From Plicaturopsis crispa FD-325 SS-3 (Eukaryota > Basidiomycota > Agaricomycetes > Amylocorticiales > Amylocorticiaceae), in contig KN832565.1 of the NCBI GenBank assembly GCA_000827205.1, positions 312,000-375,999 of the forward strand: 64,000 nt of DNA, in the 5' to 3' direction. Both the position numbers and the translations under genes were made by a program. Each line of letters starts with the position of its first letter. Position 1 is the first letter of the stretch. The notes beneath the pieces were generated by a model, which made no database searches, was not told where the DNA came from, and saw only the letters and a list, made by a program, of their open reading frames with translations. Below are positions 32,311 through 62,234 of the stretch, piece by piece.

Positions 32311-34345
32311 ATGCCCGCCTGGTTGCCCTTGCTCGTGGCTGGTCTCGCCGCCTACTTGCTTCAGCGCGTTATCGTGCGAGCAAGGCGTCATGTCCTTCCG
32401 CCAGGTCCGACGGGACTGCCTCTCATTGGCAACTTATTCGACATGCCCACCTCGATGGAGTGGATAACGTTCGCGGAATGGGGGAAGAAATATGGTAAGT
32501 GCTTCGCCATCCTAGCGACAGGACGTACTTGACGTTATAGCATCTTGTTAGGCGGCGTCTCTTCTGTCACCATACTCGGAAAGCCCTTGATCATCATCAA
32601 CTCCGTAAAGGCTGCCATAGACTTGATGGACAAGAAGAGCTCGATATATTCTGACCGACCCGTCTTCCCTATGGCAGGGGAGCTCGTAGGCTGGACCGAT
32701 ATGCTCGTCCTCTCGCCATATGGCGAGAAAACGCGACTCCACCGCAAGTTGATGCACAAAGTGATTGGCACGCCCAATAGCGTACAACGGCTCGTGCCAC
32801 TTGCAGAGGCTGAGACTGTACGGTTCATCAACCGGGTCATTTCCAAGCCTGAAGATTTCGCGACCCATATACGCCTGTGCGTTGATTTTTTACGCTCAAT
32901 TTCGACCGTGCTGATGTCGCTTCTGTACAGTACTGCAGGGGCAATCATCCTGCTCGTCTCGCACGGTTACGAGGTCAAGGGGCCCGATGATCCATTCATA
33001 GACTTGGCCAACAAAGCCATCGCCCAGTTCTCGGAATGCACAATCCCCGGAGCATTCTTGGTAGACGTCTTTCCGATTTGTGGGTTCTCCAGTCGGCGCA
33101 TAGCGAACTCTTAGTGGCGTGACATTCAGCGCTAACGGCACGTCAATCAATTAGTACGATATGTGCCCGCATGGTTTCCCGGTGCTGGTTTCAAGAAGCT
33201 TGCGAAAGAGTGGCGGCAAACTCTCCAGGACATGGCAGAAGAGCCCTACAAATTTGTCTTGAAACAAATGGTTCGCTTACACTCTACTCGCTCTGAACGT
33301 GAATGATAGCTACCCGCGGACGCTGATATCACTCATCTATGTAGGACGCTGGAACCGCGGTCCCATCATTCACGCACGATCTCCTCCAGACCAAGGACTT
33401 CACCGATGAAGAGAAGGTCGCTATCAAATGGTCGGCTACCTCGGTCTACGCAGGCGGCGCAGATACGGTACGGCCTGATTTTCTCTGCCAGTGTTCTCTC
33501 ACTGAATCGCATGTTTCCAGACCGTGTCGGTCATCCACGCCTTCTTCCAGGCCATGACTTTGTATCCTGAGGTACAGAAACGAGCACAGGCTGAAATCGA
33601 AGCTGTCCTCGGCCCTAACACGTTGCCGACCTTTTCGGACCGCGCACGCTTACCGTACGTCGATGCTCTGGTGAAAGAGGTACAGCGATGGCACACGGTA
33701 GTGCCACTAAGTGAGTCGGATCGCTTCTACGCCGTCAGGTTGTCCGCTCATGGTGTTCAATGATACGCAGCCCCGCATCGGGTCATGGAGGAAGATATCT
33801 ACGAGGGACATCGGATACCTGCAGGTGCAACCGTGATAGCAAACATGGAGTACGTCTCGCTAGCGTCATCCTGACATTTATCCGTTCTCAATCTATTCTC
33901 CAGTTACATGCTGCACGATCCCGAGACATACCCCAACCCATCGGTCTTTGACCCGACCCGGTTCATCCCATCTGAAGGAAAAGAAGTGCAATTAGATCCT
34001 CGCATCATTTGCTTCGGGTTTGGCAGACGGTCCGTCATACACCCCGCATACATTGTCGCGCAGCTGTACTCACTGTCACGTCATCAGGATTTGCCCTGGG
34101 GTATATTTCGTGGACATGACGGTATTCTCTTCATGTGCCATGGCTCTAGCCACCCTCAATATCGGTAAATACGTCGAGAATGGTGTGGTCATGGAGCCCT
34201 CTCTCGAACCTATTCCCGGAGGTGTCCAGTGCGTGCACAATTGCTCTGAATACTCCATTCCCTACTAACGACGACCGCCTGCAGTCATCCAAGGCCCTTC
34301 AAGTGCTCTATCACGCCCCGTGCGCCTTATGAGAATGGCATTTGA
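32311..34345 (+). CDS. Cytochrome P450, copy 1
   Basis: Predicted 497-aa microsomal monooxygenase; substrate unknown. Ten exons: 32311-32494, 32552-32876, 32931-33079, 33155-33270, 33345-33467, 33521-33710, 33771-33849, 33904-34029, 34088-34228, 34285-34345; all phases agree. N-terminal anchor MPAWLPLLVAGLAAYLLQRV, then the Pro-rich hinge LPPGPTGLPLIGNLF. I-helix YAGGADTTVSVIHAFF, K-helix region VQRWHTVVPL, PERF-like FDPTRFIPSEGK and the heme loop CFGFGRRICPGVYF with the Cys ligand across intron 8. Looks intact. The I-helix reads GADTT rather than the commonest AGTDTT. It lies tail-to-tail with copy 2 and is more diverged from copies 2 and 3 than those are from each other. The exon-6 end gives VPLTPHR where the copies have VPLGAPH-like sequence. 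Confidence 0.9.
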
Positions 34346-34695: not shown

Positions 34696-36751
34696 TCAGT
34701 TTCCTGGAATCCCATTTCCATATGGTGCACGAGCCGTGATAGAGCACTTGAATGGCACCGGATGGCTGTAAGGGAACATGTTTGTGTTAGGAAATGGAGT
34801 GTTTTGAGGCAGAGCATTGTTTACGAACTTGACACTTCCTGGGGTCTTGTCCATGACGGGCTCTACAACCATACCGTTCTCGACGTATTTGGCTATATTG
34901 AGGGTGGCCAGAGCCATGACACATGATGAGAATACCGTCATGTCTGCGAAATGTATCCCAGGGCAAACGCTGACATGCCAGTGAGCACAGTTGCACGAGA
35001 ATATCTGTGAGGCGTGTAACATACCGTCTTCCAAACCCGAAGCAAATGCTCCGAGGGTCTTTCTGAGGTACTTTGCCTTCAGATGGGATGAACCGGGTTG
35101 GGTCAAAGACCGATGGGTTGGGGTATGTCAGTGGATCGTGCAGCATGTTACTACAGAGCGGAATGATAGTTGATAAATGAGCGAAGGATGCCAGTATTTA
35201 AAGTACGAGACATACTCAAGATTAGCTATCACCGTGGAGCCTGCGGGTATTCGATATCCCTCGTGCACATCTTCTTCCAAGACACAATGGGGGGCTGGAT
35301 AGGTGTCGTGAAATATTGATCTGGCGGCGTAGAAGTGCGCGACTTACCTAGCGGCACTACCGTGTTCCACCGCAGTACTTCCTTTACCAGAGCATCTACA
35401 TACGGCAGGCGTTCGCGGTCCGTGTAGGTCGGCAGAGTATGGGTACCCACAACGGCTTCGATTTCTGCCTGTGCTTGCTTCTGCACCTCGGGATACAGCG
35501 TCATAGCGAGAAAGAAGGCGTGGATAGCCGATATGGTCTGGGAACAGGGGATTGAGAGATAGAACGACAGAGCGAGATGTGTAGGCCGCACGGTGTCTCC
35601 ACCGCCCGAGTAAAGCGATGCGGCGGACCATTTGATAGCGAGCTCTTCGTCAGCAGTGAGACCTTTTTTCTCGAGGAGCTCGTGTGTATATGATGGGACC
35701 GCATTTCCAGTGTCCTACATAGATGGATGATATCAGCTTTCATGGTAGTAGATGGCATTCAAGTTCAGTGCGTGTAAACTCCAAACACACCATTTGTTCC
35801 TTCACGAAAGCGAAGGGCCTTTCTACCATGTCATGGAGCGTCTGCCTGAACTCTTTCGCGAGCCTTTTAAACCCAGCGCCGGGAAACCATTCGGGCACAT
35901 ATCGAACTACCAAAGTGTCGTTAGCGTTGCATGCTCCCACAATCATGGCCCACTAAGCACGAGATGTATAACACACAAATTGGCACGACATCTACCCAGA
36001 ATGCTCCAGGGGTTGTGCATTCTGAGAACTGAGAGTCAGCTCTCTCGACCAAGTCTACGAACGGATCATGGTGTTCTTGAACTTCGTAGCCGTACGAAAC
36101 GAGTAGAATAATGGCTCCCGCAGAACTACAGAACCAACCAAGATCAGCGCGGTCGAATTGTAGCGTCAATAAATCAACGCACTGTCGTATCTGTGTCGCC
36201 AGATCTTCTGGCTTGGATATGACTCGATTTATGAACCGACGAGTTTCAGCCTCGGCGATTGGTACAAGTCGTTGCACGCTTTTGGCCGTGCCAATTGTTT
36301 TGTAGAGTAATTTGCGGTGTAACCGTGACTTTTCGCCATATGGACTGAGGACGAGCATATCGTTCCAGCCTGCGAGCTCCCCTACCATAAGGAAGGTGGG
36401 TCGATCAGAATATATTGCACTCTTCTTTTCCAGAATGTCTATGGCAGCCTTTGCCGTGTTGAGGATGATTATGGGCTTTCCAAATATGGTGACAAAACAT
36501 ATATCACCTGCCGAGATCCTATGGGGTCAAGTACTTTCAATACCTGGGATCGCGAAGCACTTACCATATTTCTTCCCCCATTCCGCAAACTTCATCCACT
36601 GGTTCGAGGTGGGCATGTCGAATAAGTTACCAACGAGAGGCAACCCCCTTGGACCTGGAGGAAGGGAGGCACGACGTTTTGCTTGTTCGGAGACGCGTTG
36701 AAGTAAGTAGATGGCGAGGCCAGCCAATAGTATGGACAACAAAGCGGGCAT
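34696..36751 (-). CDS. Cytochrome P450, copy 2
   Basis: Predicted 501-aa P450. Exons 36751-36565, 36507-36183, 36125-35977, 35906-35791, 35714-35592, 35537-35348, 35294-35216, 35150-35025, 34969-34829, 34765-34696; every intron sits at the same position and phase as in copies 1 and 3, and the frame closes. Anchor MPALLSILLAGLAIYLLQRV, hinge LPPGPRGLPLVGNLF, I-helix YSGGGDTTISAIHAFF, K-helix EVLRWNTVVPL, FDPTRFIPSEGK and heme loop CFGFGRRVCPGIHFADM. Intact by reading. The C-terminus extends to ARAPYGNGIPGN. Together with copy 3 it arose by the 3 kb tandem duplication. Substrate not predictable; such clusters often act in secondary metabolism or xenobiotic breakdown. Confidence 0.9.
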
Positions 36752-52718: not shown

Positions 52719-55438
52719 ATGTCGTCCAGCGACGCACAGAAGCCATATATCGTATTTGGATATGGGTCCTTGATTTTCAAGGTAAATCGTCTAAAGCTTA
52801 ATTGAAACGCGGGAGCTTTGCTGACTCATTCCTGATACTCAGCCCCCACCTCATGCCATAGCAGAAGGTATATTCCTTGCGAATGACTACTCATCTGATT
52901 TTGTTGACGGGAGCGGTTTGTTTTCCGTGCAGTTCCTGGATATCTGAAAGGATATGTCCGCCGTTTTGCGCAAAAATCGCACGATCACCGTGGAACACCC
53001 GAAGTACGTGGTGCAAGTCAATAAACCGTCGAAATGCTTGAAGTATCGACGACATTGCTGACAGAACCCTGGTCGAGTCGTCACTTTGGTACACAAGGAA
53101 GACTGGGACTCCTTCTCAGGCGCGGTCTGTTACAAGTATCTGTGAGACTGAATAGAACATGGATTCTTACAGTTTGTATTACTAGGACCCGTTCCCGGAC
53201 GAAGATACTGTATGGGGTGAGACTGACCTCTCCTTTGATAACTCCACCTCACTGAGACTACCAATTTCAAGGTGTGGCATACACAATAGATCCCATCCAT
53301 GCCGCAGATATCCGTGATTATCTAGGTCAGAATTATTTGACGATTCAATTCCAGGGTTCAAGCAGTGCTAACGGATCCCTCAGATTATCGTGAAAAGGTT
53401 TGGTTCTTTTTAGTTTGCGAGGTGTATGTCCTTGGCTTGACAGCGATTGGCCCACGAAGGATGGGTATACTCTTGAATCAGTAGATATCTACGGTCATGA
53501 CGAAAATGGTCAAGAGAAACTTGTAATTCAAGGGGTACGTCTCGCTGTGTACTCCCAAGCCATGCGATAGATTTATCGGATCCTCACCATTGTGTAGGCC
53601 GAGGTGCGTAGTTGCGGATTAAACGGTTGGATCTACCGAAGTCACTCATACCACTGTGCAGTGCTATGTGGGCCGAGAAGACAACCCTTCATTCAGTGAG
53701 CTCCCGCTGAGATATATCACACCACGACTCGATGTATTTCTTAACATCTTATCCACATCACAGTCGCCGCTGAACCCCTCGATGTCCTCGCTGAGAAAAT
53801 CTGGTCGTCAGTCGGGCCATCTGGACCGAACAAGGTGCGGTTTATTCCTATCCCCAACTACGATGTGTTGGTTTGATGTGCTGATTCCAATTTCACTCTG
53901 AAGGAGTATTTCTACAAATTGACCGAATCGGTTAGACAGCTAGCTCCAGACTCGCACGATTCACACCTGTATGCTCTCGAGGTATAGACCTTTCTCTACT
54001 CCTCTGTGTCATGAAGGATGATGTTCGACTACTACGCAGGCTCGGATTAAGGAGCTGGACAGTGCACAGGGGAGCGAAGACCTTCAGTCCGTCGCTAAGC
54101 CGTCTAAGCCATATGTTGTCTTCGGATATGGGTCGTTGGTATTCAAGGTCAGCCTAGGTGGTCCTTCTATGGCGACAAGGATATTGACTCGGTGCCCTCG
54201 CAGCCTCCGCCGTATGTCATCGCTCAAGGTCAGTCCAGTCCTGGGTATGTTCATGGTTTCGGTCTCATTCAGGTGAACAGTCGCGGGGTACTTGAAGGGC
54301 TACGTGCGACGTTTCGCGCAGATGTCTCACTACCATCGCGGAACAGTCGAGGTGAGTGATCAAGAATACACGGAGACACAATACAGTTTGATTAATCGCT
54401 CATTGCTATTATCATCAGAATCCGGGTCGTGCGGTTACGTTGATCCATAAAGAAGACTGGGATTCTTTCAACTCAACCTCTGCAGTAAGCCATGCCATGC
54501 TCGGATGTTCATTATACACTAATTAGCGGCGCCTTTGCATAGGATGCATTTCCCAACGAGGACACAGTCTGGGGTACGTTGATTCAGTCTCTACCTAAAA
54601 CTAACGGACAAAAAAATTGACGACTAGAGAATTCTAGGAATTGCTTATACTATCGACCCCATACACGAGTCCAATGTCCGAGACTATCTAGGTATTTCAG
54701 TATCAAACACATTTCTCTCGCGTCGACTAATTTTGTGCCGCAGACTTCCGGGAAAAGGTCGGCTCAATTCGTGCAACTGGTATGTGCAACTTGGAATAGG
54801 GCTTACATCACAATTGCAGGACGGGTATACACTCGAGACCCTTGATATCTATGGTATTGTTAACGGGGAGGAACAGGTGGTAGTACACGATGTGAGTAGG
54901 TTTCCGTCTGTATCTTAGTTTGCGAACGTGAACTGATCTTTGCCGTGACTTTGCTTTGGAAACTGGAGTGCTTTGTATGTCTATGCATGATTGCCATGAG
55001 TAAGCTCATCTAATGAATTCTAACCGGGAGCAGTGCTACGTAGGCCGCAAGGACAATCCATCCTTCGGTAAGCACATTCCTCACATTTTATCTCGCAGAA
55101 GCTGAGTACATGCAGTCGGTTATGAGCCCTTAGATGCTCTGGCCCGTCATATCTGGAAATCAGTCGGCCCTTCCGGGTCCAACAAAGTAAAGGCGATGAC
55201 CTCTCTCCGTCGCACTGTGCTCACTCTACCGCTGAATAGGAATATGTATTCAAACTGGCAGACGCCGTACGCTCACTTGCCCCCGAGTCCCACGATGACC
55301 ACCTATTCGCTCTCGAGGTACGCAACACACGCACACTGAATAATTTAGTTTGATAAGTATTTACGGTTCTATTGATAGACACGGATTCGAAAGCTGGACG
55401 ACGAAAGCAAGGTAGATGCGGTAGAAATGAGCAAGTAA
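52719..55438 (+). CDS. Fused tandem ChaC-type gamma-glutamylcyclotransferase
   Basis: Predicted 419-aa protein of two ChaC domains in one reading frame. ChaC enzymes cut glutathione's gamma-glutamyl bond to give 5-oxoproline and Cys-Gly in the cytosol. Twenty-three exons: 52719-52781, 52843-52867, 52933-53003, 53065-53124, 53186-53216, 53272-53325, 53384-53397, 53460-53534, 53662-53695, 53764-53834, 53904-53981, then linking exon 54040-54147, then 54204-54228, 54281-54351, 54419-54484, 54543-54573, 54638-54691, 54744-54757, 54820-54891, 55034-55067, 55116-55186, 55240-55317, 55379-55438. Domain 1: YIVFGYGSLIFK, YVRRFAQKSHDHRGTPENPG, YREKDGY, CYVGREDNPSF, GPSGPNKEYF. Domain 2: YVVFGYGSLVFK, YVRRFAQMSHYHRG, FREKDGY, CYVGRKDNPSF, GPSGSNKEYV. 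The catalytic Glu (as in human ChaC2 FREKGGY) is kept in both. Exon 12 carries the linker AQGSEDLQSVAKPSK with no stop and no Met. Confidence 0.9.
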
Positions 55439-55573: not shown

Positions 55574-57792
55574 TTACGACCTTGGACTACCATTTCCATT
55601 CATCTCGCCCTCGGGTCGGGGTGGGGACAACAGAGGCGTCCGCTCGTCAGCAGCGCCGGTATTTACACGTCGCTCACGTTCGACGATGCTACACAATTCG
55701 TCATCAGTGACTGCAGGGAGTGGAGTAATGCGAATCATACCCTCGTGCGACGGTTGCATTCGTGATGCGTTTGGCCTGTTTCTTCCCTTGGTTATCCTCG
55801 TAGAGATCGGTTTCGTCGACGATCTCTTCCGAAATGATCTCCTATAATTGAGGGGATTGAGGTTAGCCATCCGCCTTCAAGCCCGAGGGGCCGAGAACAT
55901 TACCTCGATGATATCTAGATACCGGCGAGGAAAAATTCTTAGCATGCTGTAAGACCCAAGAAAAAGCAAGAGCGCCTACCCTCCAACGTGATCACGCCAA
56001 TTGCACCACCGGCGATTCCTGGTGTATGGCTGACGAGCAGCAAATGTGAGCGGCCCGTCTGGCTATATCCATATGATCTGGTCAGTTGGGCGCAACTTGG
56101 CAGCATTCATAAACGCACAAGTAGTCGAGAGCCTGGAAGCAGTTTATCGATGGCTTGGCCTCGGGTAGAATGCCGAGCTTAAAGCTCGATACAGGCAATG
56201 CTTGGGCAGGGTCGTATTTTAGCAGCTAAGTAGTGGAGCTCAGTCAGATCATATTTGAAGGAGACTGCGGAAGGATAAGACCTTTTTGATGAGCAATAGC
56301 CCGACGAAAGCCAAAGGCTTTCCGGGCTCGTGTACCGGAAAGCGAGAATAGCCACTAGACAGGCTACACCAGTGTGTCAGTATTAGTCTTTTGTACATGA
56401 GAGCCAGGGTGCCAACATTTTGTCCACTGCTTGATGATCCAAGATCGTGTCTGTGCTCAATGTGACCGCATCCTGGGCGATGATTAAGTATGGATGAGCT
56501 ATATTTTACAGAGACACACACCTCCATGCTCGTCATGATCTCCTCGACGTTCTTGGTATTTAGCTCCAGTACACCATTAAGGATGTTAATCTCGTCGTCC
56601 TGAGAGGTGATGAGATCTAGGACGTGAAGATGACGCGGATACACGCACCCTGAGAGGCTCTTCGCCGGTACGATGGAATTGCAGAAATGATTTCAACTCA
56701 GCCTTCTTGTAAGTGTGATTGTCGTTCGCGCCTAGCACATAGTCGAGCAACTTTGCTATCGGGTAGGCGATGGGCGCTGTATGGTGTTGGTTAGTTGAAC
56801 GGGTTGCGATGAATGGCTAGACTCACAGAACAGATACATCAGGAACAGCACGAATGGTGCACACTTTGCACCGATGCCAAGTCCATACCGAACACTAGCG
56901 GCTTGTGGGATGATTCTGAATTCCATTAGCCACGGTGATGCCTTCGAGGAAAATATTTCTTACTCGCTGTGGTTTAAAAGGGCGGGATGAGTTAAGTGTC
57001 AGTGATGTTTCCCTGGCGCGACAGCACATACCCGAATATAACTGAGAATTTCTTGGTTAGCGGTGAAACATGCGGGGACAATGTGTTGCTCACCAATCGC
57101 AGTAGTAGAGATGACAACAGCAGCAATACCACCGCCGAGCTATACATGACGTGAGGACAGAAAAGACATGCATAGAAGAATATCACACACTGCACTATCC
57201 AAGAATATTGGAAGACTCTCGTTCACGATCTATACCAGGGTCATCATTTATTTGACTCGGCATTCTGTAACAGCCCTCACGAACCACATTTCCGAGCAGG
57301 AGCACCTGCAGTTGAACACGTCAATTAACGAGCCCTACGGGTACACACATCGGTGGACTCACCACGAGAACCCAGTGTCGGCCTTTCTGCATCAATTTGA
57401 GAACTCGAGGTAACTCGTGAGCCGAGTGCTGCTTGCATTAAACATAATAGCACACCTGTCGCCGCGTCCTTCTTCTCCTTTGGGTCATCTGAGGACGTTG
57501 CGAGAACCCTCAGGTGTAGTTCTTCTAAGCCCATGAGCCCTAGGGTCAATCTGTGCGTCCCACCTTGAGCTTTCACCATATGCATGATACACATTGATGC
57601 TCACCCTGCGAATGCGCCTCCGACCAAGACAAGCACTATGCTGACAGCAATCTTGTACCAGAATGCAGGTGATCCCACGGGTTCTCCGCCATGTTTTACG
57701 GCAGTCTCGACAATGGCACTGTTGTGCACGAATGGTGAAGCATATGCTAGGGGAATTTGCAACGCAGTCGAAGCGAGAACTAGTTTGTTCAT
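55574..57792 (-). CDS. CNNM/Mam3-type DUF21-CBS membrane protein
   Basis: Predicted 430-aa protein, likely in metal homeostasis at the vacuole or plasma membrane. Eighteen exons: 57792-57605, 57550-57456, 57403-57363, 57305-57285, 57229-57191, 57139-57094, 57041-57032 (10 nt), 56966-56964 (3 nt), 56915-56827, 56776-56649, 56599-56522, 56472-56417, 56363-56282, 56225-56119, 56062-55980, 55914-55904 (11 nt), 55841-55741, 55688-55574. DUF21: IAVSIVLVLVGGAFAGLTLG, LMGLEELHLRVLATSS, KGRHWVLVVLLLGNVIVNE, GGGIAAVVISTTAIVIFGE, then IIPQAASVRYGLGIGAKCAP. CBS pair: DDEINILNGVLELNTKNVEE, ILSSGYSRFPVHEPG, HTPGIAGGAIGVITLEDIIE. The 3-nt exon supplies the Glu of the conserved FGEIIPQ motif. A signal-like N-terminus (MNKLVLASTALQIPLAYA) precedes the first helix. 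The tail after RGIVERERR is short and disordered. Confidence 0.88.
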
Positions 57793-58053: not shown

Positions 58054-60282
58054 ATGCTAGGACTGCGATATAATCCTTGCAAACAACACCTGACATCTGC
58101 ACTTGGTGCATTCTATCACTCTGGGTCTCCTACCAAATTATTCTCCCAGTCGAAACCGGTTATTCTCCGACGCGCAAAGGACAAGATGAGTCGATTGAGG
58201 TACTCGCCCGATCTCGACGACAAGGATCTCCAACTGCCACCCGAGAAAAAGCCTCGTCTTGAGCTATCTGCCTCTCCGGTACCTCCTGCGGAGTCCGGGT
58301 CTCACACCGAAACTGAGGCCAAAATCGATGGTATGCTCGATGTCCTGGTCAGCTCAGAGCGGAAGGCTGTCGCGCGGCGGTCTCGTAGTAGTAGCCCCGA
58401 TGCACCGGCGGACCCAACGGCTACCAATCCTTTGCAAGGAATCAGACCGAGTCGTACTGATGGGGCTGAGAAGAAAACGGGCAAATCGAAGAAGGCGAAG
58501 AATAAGAAAGTCCGCCACAACATACCGGAGCCGTGTTCTACAGAAGACGTCCTGTGGAGGGATATTGTTGCCGTTCTCGGTCAGGAGGCTGTTGACGAGG
58601 CCAGCAAAACGGAGGGCCTTATGTGGGACTCCCCGTATGCATTTCACGATGAAGTGGAATGCGAAGTCTCGGAACTGTCTTCAAACGGTGCGCCATACGC
58701 GTCTTTTGTGTGATGTCGCGTCGCGAGCTTCACTACAAATATCTAATGAGCCCCGCTTGACGCGCAGGCGAAGGACTGGCGGTTCCGGTCGAGGGAACAA
58801 GGCCCTGGGTGATAGTGGTCCCCTTTGCTCTCCCTGGAGAACGAATCCGGGCGCGCATATATCGTAACGATCGAATGCATTCCCGTGGGGATCTAGTCAG
58901 CGTCGATACCCCAAACCCAGCGCTGCGAGACGATAGCAGAGTAGCGTGCAAATACTTTGGGCAGTGTGCCGGTTGCCAGTATCAGGTACGCGCCGTCAAA
59001 TAGTTCACCTTCGTACTTTTCATGGAATATTTTCCAGATGCTTTCGTACGAGCAACAGTTAGATATCAAACAAAATGTAGTGGTGAAAGCATTCCGCAAT
59101 TTCTCTGGTATGTACATCGTCGCACATCCACAAACCGTCTCGTGATAAACATCACTCTAATAGGTCTACCTGAGTCGAGCGTACCTACTGTTCTGCCCAC
59201 CATCCCGTCACCCAAACAGCTCAACTACCGCACAAAACTCACGCCACATTTTGAGGCGCCATCTAAGAAGCACCTCAAAAACGGTGGCACTCAAAGTGGT
59301 GGGGATGACAAGACCCATCGCGCATGGCTCAAAATCGGCTTCAATCGTATCGGCACCCGAAATGCGATGGACATTGAGGTATCATATAACGAATCTTCCC
59401 ATGAAGCTTGTTGACTGATGCATACTTTAGGAATGTCCCATCGGCACTCCGGTGCTGAATGAGAAGTACAACTCTCTTCGCGTGCAGATTCACAAGGACA
59501 TCTACAAGTACAAAAAAGGCGTATCGTTGCTACTGCGAGACTCTCTGGAAATACCCAGTACTAACAGTGAACCACCCACCACCATAGAGGCGGACTCGGA
59601 CAGCTCTCTCGCTTCGTCTTTTGAAAAACATGTCTGCGTGACGGATCATAAAGCAATCGTGCGCGAGCGTGTCGGGGACAAGATTTTCGAGTTCCCAGGC
59701 GGGTCGTTTTTCCAAAACAACAACTCCATTTTGGTACCACTGACGACATACGTCCGCGACGCCATCTTCCCCCCGACTTCCTCGTCGTCGCCGCCACCCC
59801 CACGTCTCACGCACCTGATCGACGCGTACTGCGGGTCTGGCTTGTTCGCCATCACACTCTCCGAGCATTTCGACACTATCGCCGGAATTGAGCTTTCCGC
59901 CGACTCGATCAAATACGCGAAGCACAACGCGCAGCTGAACGGTATCCCGGAAGGGAAATGCTCCTTCCGCGCGGGCGACGCAGCCCACCTATTTACCACG
60001 GTCCAGGACTTCCCGCCGGAGCAGTCGGTGCTTATCATCGATCCTCCGCGCAAGGGGTGCGATGAGAGCTTCATCAACCAACTGCTGGCGTTCAAGGCAA
60101 AGACGGTCGTGTACGTGAGCTGCAATGTGCACACGCAGGCAAGGGATATCGGGATGATATTAAACCGGGGTACAGAGGGCGGAGGGGAAGGGGGAAGATA
60201 CGTTTTGGAGAGTTTACGGGGATTCGATTTGTATCCCCAGACGGCGCATGTCGAATCTGTTGCCGTGCTTCGTCTCGTATGA
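58054..60282 (+). CDS. TRM2: tRNA (uracil-5-)-methyltransferase Trm2
   Basis: Predicted 662-aa enzyme making m5U54 in the T-loop of tRNAs. Exons 58054-58687, 58768-58985, 59038-59107, 59164-59378, 59431-60282; the frame closes. After a charged, Lys-rich N-terminal third comes a TRAM-like domain (WVIVVPFALPGERIRARIYR), then CKYFGQCAGCQYQ, a Cys cluster as in iron-sulfur RumA-type enzymes. Catalytic domain: KIGFNRIGTRNAMDIEECPI, FPGGSFFQNNNSILVPLT, the SAM loop LIDAYCGSGLFAITLSEHF, LIIDPPRKGCDESFI and the nucleophile Cys in VVYVSCNVHTQARDI. Two starts are possible: ATG 58054 adds 44 residues that are basic with no acid until the last few (like a mitochondrial presequence); ATG 58186 (MSRLRYSPDLDD) gives a 618-aa form. 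Confidence 0.92.

Positions 60283-60679: not shown

Positions 60680-62234
<1,555 letters not shown>

What the first reader, a model, noticed from the sequence alone, without database searches (positions are those of the whole stretch)
52719..55438. Two ChaC domains fused in one gene, with exon structure copied in both halves
The sequence shows two full ChaC domains read in one frame through an exon (54040-54147) that finishes domain 1, crosses a short linker and starts domain 2 with no stop and no Met. Internal exon lengths run 25, 71, 60, 31, 54, 14, 75, 34, 71, 78 in the first half and 25, 71, 66, 31, 54, 14, 72, 34, 71, 78 in the second, so the duplication copied introns too. Both halves keep YGSL and the catalytic Glu (REKDGY). 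ChaC enzymes are normally single-domain, so the fusion may give a dimer-like or dual-specificity glutathione-degrading enzyme.
Basis: partly seen in the sequence, partly recalled or inferred. Interest (0 to 1): 0.75.

Follow-up and report, generated by a model that had tools for sequence, protein, structure and literature searches.

The report
Two-headed glutathione-degrading enzyme gene
A wood-decay fungus carries a gene in which two copies of a glutathione-breaking enzyme sit head to tail and can be read as one protein, with the second copy changed near its active site; the enzyme family is well known, but this doubled form seems rare.

Summary
One gene at 52719-55438 (+) encodes two complete ChaC domains in one spliced frame, joined inside the exon at 54040-54147 with no stop and no in-frame Met. 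The species is Plicatura (Plicaturopsis) crispa: its deposited protein PLICRDRAFT_283633 equals half 1 but stops one codon into the junction intron. No separate half-2 protein was found. No other ChaC gene was detected in the assembly. Of 255 fetched homologues, one predicted Branchiostoma protein also has two full ChaC domains. Synonymous sites between halves are saturated while 139 of 194 aligned residues agree, so half 2 was long under selection; lacking a start of its own, it is most simply translated as a fusion. The halves are unequal: half 2 has Tyr for the near-invariant Asp of DHRG and Asn at human ChaC2 Glu74, but keeps the other active-site residues checked. Best reading: a tandem in-frame duplication giving one ordinary and one altered GSH-cyclotransferase domain; retention of the junction intron would give a single-domain form. 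Transcript evidence is missing.

The parts
52719..55438 (+). Whole coding region of the two-ChaC gene, 25 exons, 423 aa
   Evidence: Spliced model in one frame with GT-AG introns; both halves match PF04752; no N inside
52719..53981 (+). Half 1: exons 1-12, ChaC domain 1 (exons 52719-52781, 52843-52867, 52933-53003, 53065-53124, 53186-53216, 53272-53325, 53384-53397, 53460-53534, 53598-53603, 53662-53695, 53764-53834, 53904-53981)
   Evidence: Identical to the first 194 of 195 residues of deposited P. crispa protein P0121
53598..53603 (+).
   Evidence: Present in P0121; flanked by AG and GT
53982..54039 (+). Junction intron 12 (58 nt); if retained, the frame reads Val-stop (TAG 53985-53987), giving the 195-aa single-domain protein deposited as PLICRDRAFT_283633
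54040..54147 (+). Fusion exon 13: end of domain 1, linker, start of domain 2; no stop, no in-frame ATG
54112..55438 (+). Half 2: ChaC domain 2 (end of exon 13 and exons 54204-54228, 54281-54351, 54419-54484, 54543-54573, 54638-54691, 54744-54757, 54820-54891, 54969-54974, 55034-55067, 55116-55186, 55240-55317, 55379-55438), stop TAA
   Evidence: PF04752 E 1.1e-49; PDB sequence matches to human ChaC2 and the yeast enzyme 5HWI
54969..54974 (+). Likely micro-exon 21 (TGCTTT, Cys-Phe) in half 2, inferred
   Evidence: AG before and GTATGT after and restored alignment length with relatives; but its splice sites score weakest of 24

Best explanation
A ChaC gene (glutathione-specific gamma-glutamyl cyclotransferase, the Gcg1/ChaC2 kind) was duplicated in tandem at DNA level in the lineage of Plicatura crispa. 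The last exon of copy 1, without its stop, became continuous with the first exon of copy 2, without its start, so a spliced mRNA encodes one 423-aa protein with two ChaC domains. Domain 1 is predicted to cleave GSH to 5-oxoproline and Cys-Gly. Domain 2 keeps most catalytic residues but has Tyr for the DHRG Asp and Asn for the Glu74 position, so I expect weaker or altered activity there. If junction intron 12 is left in, the protein ends after domain 1, so both a single-headed and a double-headed form may be made. Shown: the open spliced frame, two family matches, the residues, and no other ChaC gene or deposited half-2 protein within the searches made. Inferred: that the fused mRNA is made and translated, the enzyme activities, and the isoform pair.
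For: Open frame with identical intron phases in both halves. Two Pfam ChaC matches. Predicted fold of P0121 (domain 1), mean pLDDT 89.6; best PDB folds are the yeast enzyme 5HWI/5HWK and human ChaC2 6KY1. NG86 over 208 codons: pS 0.81 (saturated), pN 0.21; 46 of 67 fourfold sites differ. Simulated drift of 0.1 per site leaves half 2 stop-free in 8% and its splice dinucleotides intact in 0.7% of 2000 runs. No in-frame ATG between the upstream stop at 54019 and YGSL of domain 2. No P. crispa protein but P0121 among the 120 listed of 355 hits of half 2, best score 334 bits. In the 33.2-Mb assembly the matches of half 1 (15), half 2 (14) and Punctularia P0134 (12), all at E up to 10, fall in this gene.
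Against: The deposited protein stops after domain 1, and whether that model rests on transcripts is unknown. No RNA reads were available. With ATGs from 53401 to 54110 and introns of 40-200 nt, 23 hypothetical one-intron starts for half 2 exist on paper; two use the real donor at 53982, with acceptors not otherwise used. Selection on half 2 may predate the joining, in which case the fusion could be recent and half 2 on its way out. No relative with the fusion was found, so its age and conservation are unknown. Whether the halves are each other's closest kin is unresolved.
Confidence: 0.72

Rival explanations
1. Read-through pair: two tandem genes that are co-transcribed but translated apart. 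Half 1 ends in intron 12 as the deposited model says; half 2 is non-coding or uses an unusual start.
For: P. crispa is a species in which polycistronic read-through transcripts were described: 314 loci, involving 717 of 9,073 transcribed loci, with enrichment in tandem duplicates (PMC4503453, sections 9 and 12). Deposited protein P0121 ends LYALEV.
Against: For 234 loci that paper describes stops in all frames between the ORFs, with a mean gap of 364 nt; here domain 1 and domain 2 meet in one exon with no stop. Half 2 has no in-frame ATG yet is well preserved.
Confidence: 0.15
2. Half 2 is a decaying relic: the joining removed its start recently, and only half 1 functions through the intron-12-retained or another short transcript.
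For: Half 2 breaks the near-invariant DHRG Asp (168 of 169 relatives Asp, 1 Glu) and has Asn at the Glu74 column (0 of 169). At 108 columns conserved in 90% or more of 169 rows, half 2 has 8 breaks and half 1 has 4 (one search printed 9 and 5, counting one column filled in a single row).
Against: No stop, frameshift or lost splice dinucleotide in the half-2 exons. YGS, His, Arg, the REKDGY Glu and Tyr87/109/144 are kept. At 45 columns conserved in 99% or more both halves have 2 breaks, and 13 of 169 relatives have at least 8 breaks at the 90% level. Tree end branches of the halves are similar, 0.58 and 0.61.
Confidence: 0.1
3. Assembly or annotation artefact: a collapsed or misjoined repeat.
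For: A run of N lies not far upstream of the gene, outside the gene itself.
Against: The halves differ at 28% of aligned residues and at saturated synonymous sites, so they cannot be two readings of one locus. The gene contains no N.
Confidence: 0.03

Closest known systems
Single-domain ChaC2 / yeast Gcg1 (glutathione-specific gamma-glutamyl cyclotransferase, PF04752)
   Same: Each half matches the family over its length and human ChaC2 and yeast 5HWI by sequence; the predicted fold of domain 1 is closest to 5HWI, 5HWK and 6KY1; most active-site residues are kept.
   Different: Two domains in one protein; in domain 2 Tyr for the DHRG Asp and Asn at the Glu74 position.
Branchiostoma belcheri predicted protein P0042 (416 aa)
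   Same: The only other fetched protein with two full ChaC domains.
   Different: 34% identical to ours; its second domain begins with its own Met-Trp start-like motif, so it may be two genes merged by prediction (my reading). An independent origin is likely (inference).
Leishmania major LmChaC2a and LmChaC2b
   Same: Two ChaC copies in tandem with unequal activity, about 17-fold (PMC9586994, passages).
   Different: Two separate genes and proteins.
Polycistronic read-through units of P. crispa
   Same: Same species; enriched in tandem duplicates (PMC4503453).
   Different: Those ORFs are separated by stops in all frames; here one frame runs through once spliced.
ChaC fused to DnaJ and/or zinc-finger domains
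   Same: Another ChaC gene fusion, named in Microstroma (P0044) and Jaminaea (P0058) (Pfam column; domain names recalled).
   Different: An unrelated partner; one ChaC domain in each of the 11.

Membership tests
ChaC family (PF04752), domain 1 | Match to the family profile over its length | tested here: met
   E 2.9e-51, profile 3-175 of 176 (without the micro-exon residues)
ChaC family (PF04752), domain 2 | Match to the family profile over its length | tested here: met
   E 1.1e-49, profile 3-175 of 176 (without the micro-exon residues)
ChaC family | YGS motif, His39, Arg40, Glu83, Tyr87, Tyr109, Tyr144 (human ChaC2 numbering, from PMC7022552 passages) | tested here: met
   Conserved in both halves
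ChaC family | Glu74 (human numbering), called strictly conserved by PMC7022552 (passage) | tested here: not met
   Asp in half 1, Asn in half 2; among 169 relatives 153 Glu, 11 Asp, 3 Ala, 2 Val, so it does not strictly define the fungal family
ChaC family | GGCT fold | tested here: met
   Model of P0121 only, i.e. domain 1: pLDDT 89.6, Foldseek E 1.2e-20 to 5HWI. Domain 2 and the fusion were not folded
ChaC family | Activity on glutathione | not testable with these tools
   Needs an enzyme assay
P. crispa polycistronic unit (PMC4503453) | Separate ORFs with stop codons in all frames between them | tested here: not met
   After splicing no stop lies between the domains; with intron 12 retained a stop does follow domain 1

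The most novel reading that the evidence does not exclude
The junction intron is a switch: its removal gives a two-headed enzyme, its retention a one-headed one from the same promoter, and domain 2, with Tyr for Asp in the DHRG loop and Asn for Glu74, has become a regulatory or differently selective partner domain that tunes glutathione breakdown by domain 1 within one chain.
Probability: 0.15. Interest if true: 0.55.

Novelty: new variant of a known kind. Interest (0 to 1): 0.38.

Why it matters
ChaC enzymes take part in cytosolic glutathione turnover, and sources differ on whether human ChaC2 works as a monomer or a dimer (passages). A natural covalent pair with one altered domain would let that be tested directly. 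It is also a case in which tandem duplication, in a species known for read-through transcription of tandem duplicates, may have ended in a true protein fusion. The deposited proteome appears to lack half of this gene.

Tried and rejected
Retro-duplication was rejected: intron positions and phases are kept. Recent duplication was rejected: synonymous sites are saturated and introns mostly unalignable. Resolving whether the halves are sisters failed. In the 63-row tree half 1 paired with Punctularia (81/65) and apart from half 2; in the 55-row tree, after I dropped 8 rows (long-branched, odd in composition, or near-copies), the halves paired at 63/37. They share 2 rare residues at under 2% frequency, where no relative shares more than 1 with either half; at 5% one relative shares 3 with half 1, and at 10% the halves share 3 against maxima of 3 and 4. 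Weakness of the junction donor was tested and not found special: 10th weakest of 24; no branch-like motif was seen in intron 12, nor in 7 other introns. The early stop in intron 12 (second codon, the earliest of 24 introns) is not telling alone. Of eight polyadenylation-like hexamers none lies in intron 12 or exon 13, though AATAAA 53020 and ATTAAA 53618 lie in half-1 introns; base composition at the junction and after the stop is alike. NCBIfam gave no match for either half. A first alignment for the micro-exon check was useless and was redone. One search counted one column filled in a single row as conserved; one search corrects it. YkqA of Bacillus (2QIK) appeared as a distant fold match; I recall it as having two cyclotransferase-like domains, but one search gave no paper on that. 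Searches for two-ChaC proteins or ChaC fusions in print showed none among the rows listed; only part of the matching papers is listed (for example 20 of 2,123), and apart from the four papers named in the report I saw titles and abstract starts only.

Full report
What is there. Reading 52719-55438 on the + strand as exons gives one frame from ATG to TAA. The 108-nt exon 54040-54147 ends domain 1, crosses a short linker and begins domain 2, without stop and without an in-frame Met. Of 194 aligned residues 139 are identical between halves, and each half matches Pfam ChaC at about E 1e-49 or better (run on the model without micro-exons).

Two micro-exons. The 'introns' of 127 and 142 nt stood out; the other 20 introns are 48-69 nt. 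The deposited P. crispa protein P0121 carries two extra residues, Ala-Glu, encoded by GCCGAG inside the first. The matching place in half 2 holds TGCTTT between AG and GTATGT. With both included, the segment before CYVG has the 14-residue length found in 139 of 229 other aligned rows (142 of 232 with the two halves and P0121; 230 of 255 fetched proteins were aligned, those of 190-275 aa). The half-2 micro-exon is less sure: its acceptor and donor score weakest of the 24 in a leave-one-out matrix of this gene. With both, the model is 25 exons and 423 aa, the split introns are 63+58 and 77+59 nt, and the series of intron phases is the same in both halves.

Which organism. P0121, 'PLICRDRAFT_283633', Plicaturopsis crispa FD-325 SS-3, has 195 aa of which the first 194 equal half 1. 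The species is in Amylocorticiales. The other 119 listed hits of half 1 are 62-76% identical.

The deposited model. P0121 ends LYALEV. That is what is read if intron 12 is kept: GAG GTA TAG. I cannot tell whether this rests on transcripts or on a predictor running to the next stop. A half-2 protein was sought with half 2 as query: 355 hits, 120 listed, best 334 bits at 71% identity, none from P. crispa except P0121 itself. So half 2 appears to be missing from the deposited proteome, within the limits of that search.

How rare. Of 255 fetched proteins plus ours, scanned with a profile made from 169 relatives, two full-length ChaC domains occur in ours and in the predicted Branchiostoma protein P0042. 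P0059, P0063 and P0100 show two matches of which at least one is partial; 18 of the 255 are 380 aa or longer. The fetched set is the listed part of three searches (120 each, of 1181, 3851 and 355 hits), and only the 7997 candidates sharing most words were scored, so this is not a census. A close relative with both domains should have ranked first (inference), and none did.

Only ChaC gene found. The family model (1 match, E up to 0.001) and half 1, half 2 and Punctularia P0134 (15, 14 and 12 matches, E up to 10) hit nothing outside this gene in the 33.2-Mb assembly. The search is exon by exon and scores only the best candidates, so a diverged copy could be missed.

Selection and age. Between halves, over 208 codons, pS is 0.81 (saturated) and pN 0.21; 46 of 67 fourfold sites differ. 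Random drift of 0.1 per site would leave half 2 free of stops in 8% and with intact splice dinucleotides in 0.7% of 2000 runs. Half 2 has thus been kept by selection for a long time, though perhaps mostly before the joining. Trees of 63 and 55 rows do not settle whether the halves are sisters; both have end branches about twice the median.

Can half 2 stand alone? Upstream of its YGSL the frame is open only to a TGA at 54019, with no ATG. A script found 23 paper alternatives using an ATG at 53401-54110 and one intron of 40-200 nt; two use the true donor 53982, none both that donor and the true acceptor. This makes independent translation unlikely, not impossible.

Unequal halves. Using residues named for human ChaC2 (PMC7022552, passages and section 3.6), both halves keep Tyr6, Gly7, Ser8, Lys12, His39, Arg40, Glu83, Tyr87, Tyr109 and Tyr144. 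The Asp before His39 is Asp in half 1 and Tyr (Y256) in half 2; 168 of 169 relatives have Asp and one Glu (169 of 229 rows passed a coverage and identity filter), and human ChaC2 and the yeast enzyme also have Asp. It is the only one of 38 columns invariant in the 58-protein alignment that half 2 breaks. Glu74, whose change to Gln lowered GSH degradation from 58.97% to 21.34% in an hour in that paper, is Asp in half 1 and Asn (N307) in half 2; relatives: 153 Glu, 11 Asp, 3 Ala, 2 Val of 169. At columns conserved in 90% or more, half 1 has 4 and half 2 has 8 breaks; at 99% or more both have 2. I infer weaker or altered activity in half 2. The predicted fold of P0121 confirms the cyclotransferase fold for domain 1; domain 2 was not folded.

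Setting. In P. crispa widespread polycistronic transcripts were reported: 314 read-through loci, 25.2% of transcribed loci alternatively spliced, and read-through units enriched in tandem duplicates (PMC4503453; abstract, passages and sections 7, 9, 11 and 12 read). That gives both the main rival (a read-through pair) and a plausible route to a fusion. Unlike those units, no stop separates the domains here once spliced. In Leishmania two tandem ChaC genes differ about 17-fold in activity (PMC9586994, passages). In a 2025 review (PMC12756093, passages) the words 'fungi' and 'duplication' do not occur in the main text.

Verdict. A real, well-kept two-ChaC gene in one fungus; most likely a fused enzyme with one altered domain, possibly with a single-domain isoform. 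It is a new variant of a known family, of moderate interest until transcripts are checked.

Noticed in passing
32533-33114 (+) and 35921-36526 (-): Two open stretches of clearly similar protein (KSAIYSDRP..., LSPYGEK..LHRKL) in opposite orientation; they look like inverted cytochrome P450 duplicates (name from recall, not searched).
   Followed up: no
61197-62234 (+): Alpha/beta hydrolase (PF00561, E 3.1e-11); reads like homoserine O-acetyltransferase (recall), which would place a sulphur-amino-acid gene about 6 kb from the ChaC gene.
   Followed up: partly
59431-60282 (+): tRNA (uracil-5)-methyltransferase-like stretch (PF05958, E 4.9e-13).
   Followed up: partly
about 55650-56800 (-): Convergent neighbour gene on the minus strand whose pieces resemble CNNM/Mam3-type metal transporters (recall only; frames).
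   Followed up: no
upstream of the ChaC gene, outside it: A run of N whose two edges carry an identical 312-nt direct repeat, as at a sequence gap.
   Followed up: partly
   Followed up: no
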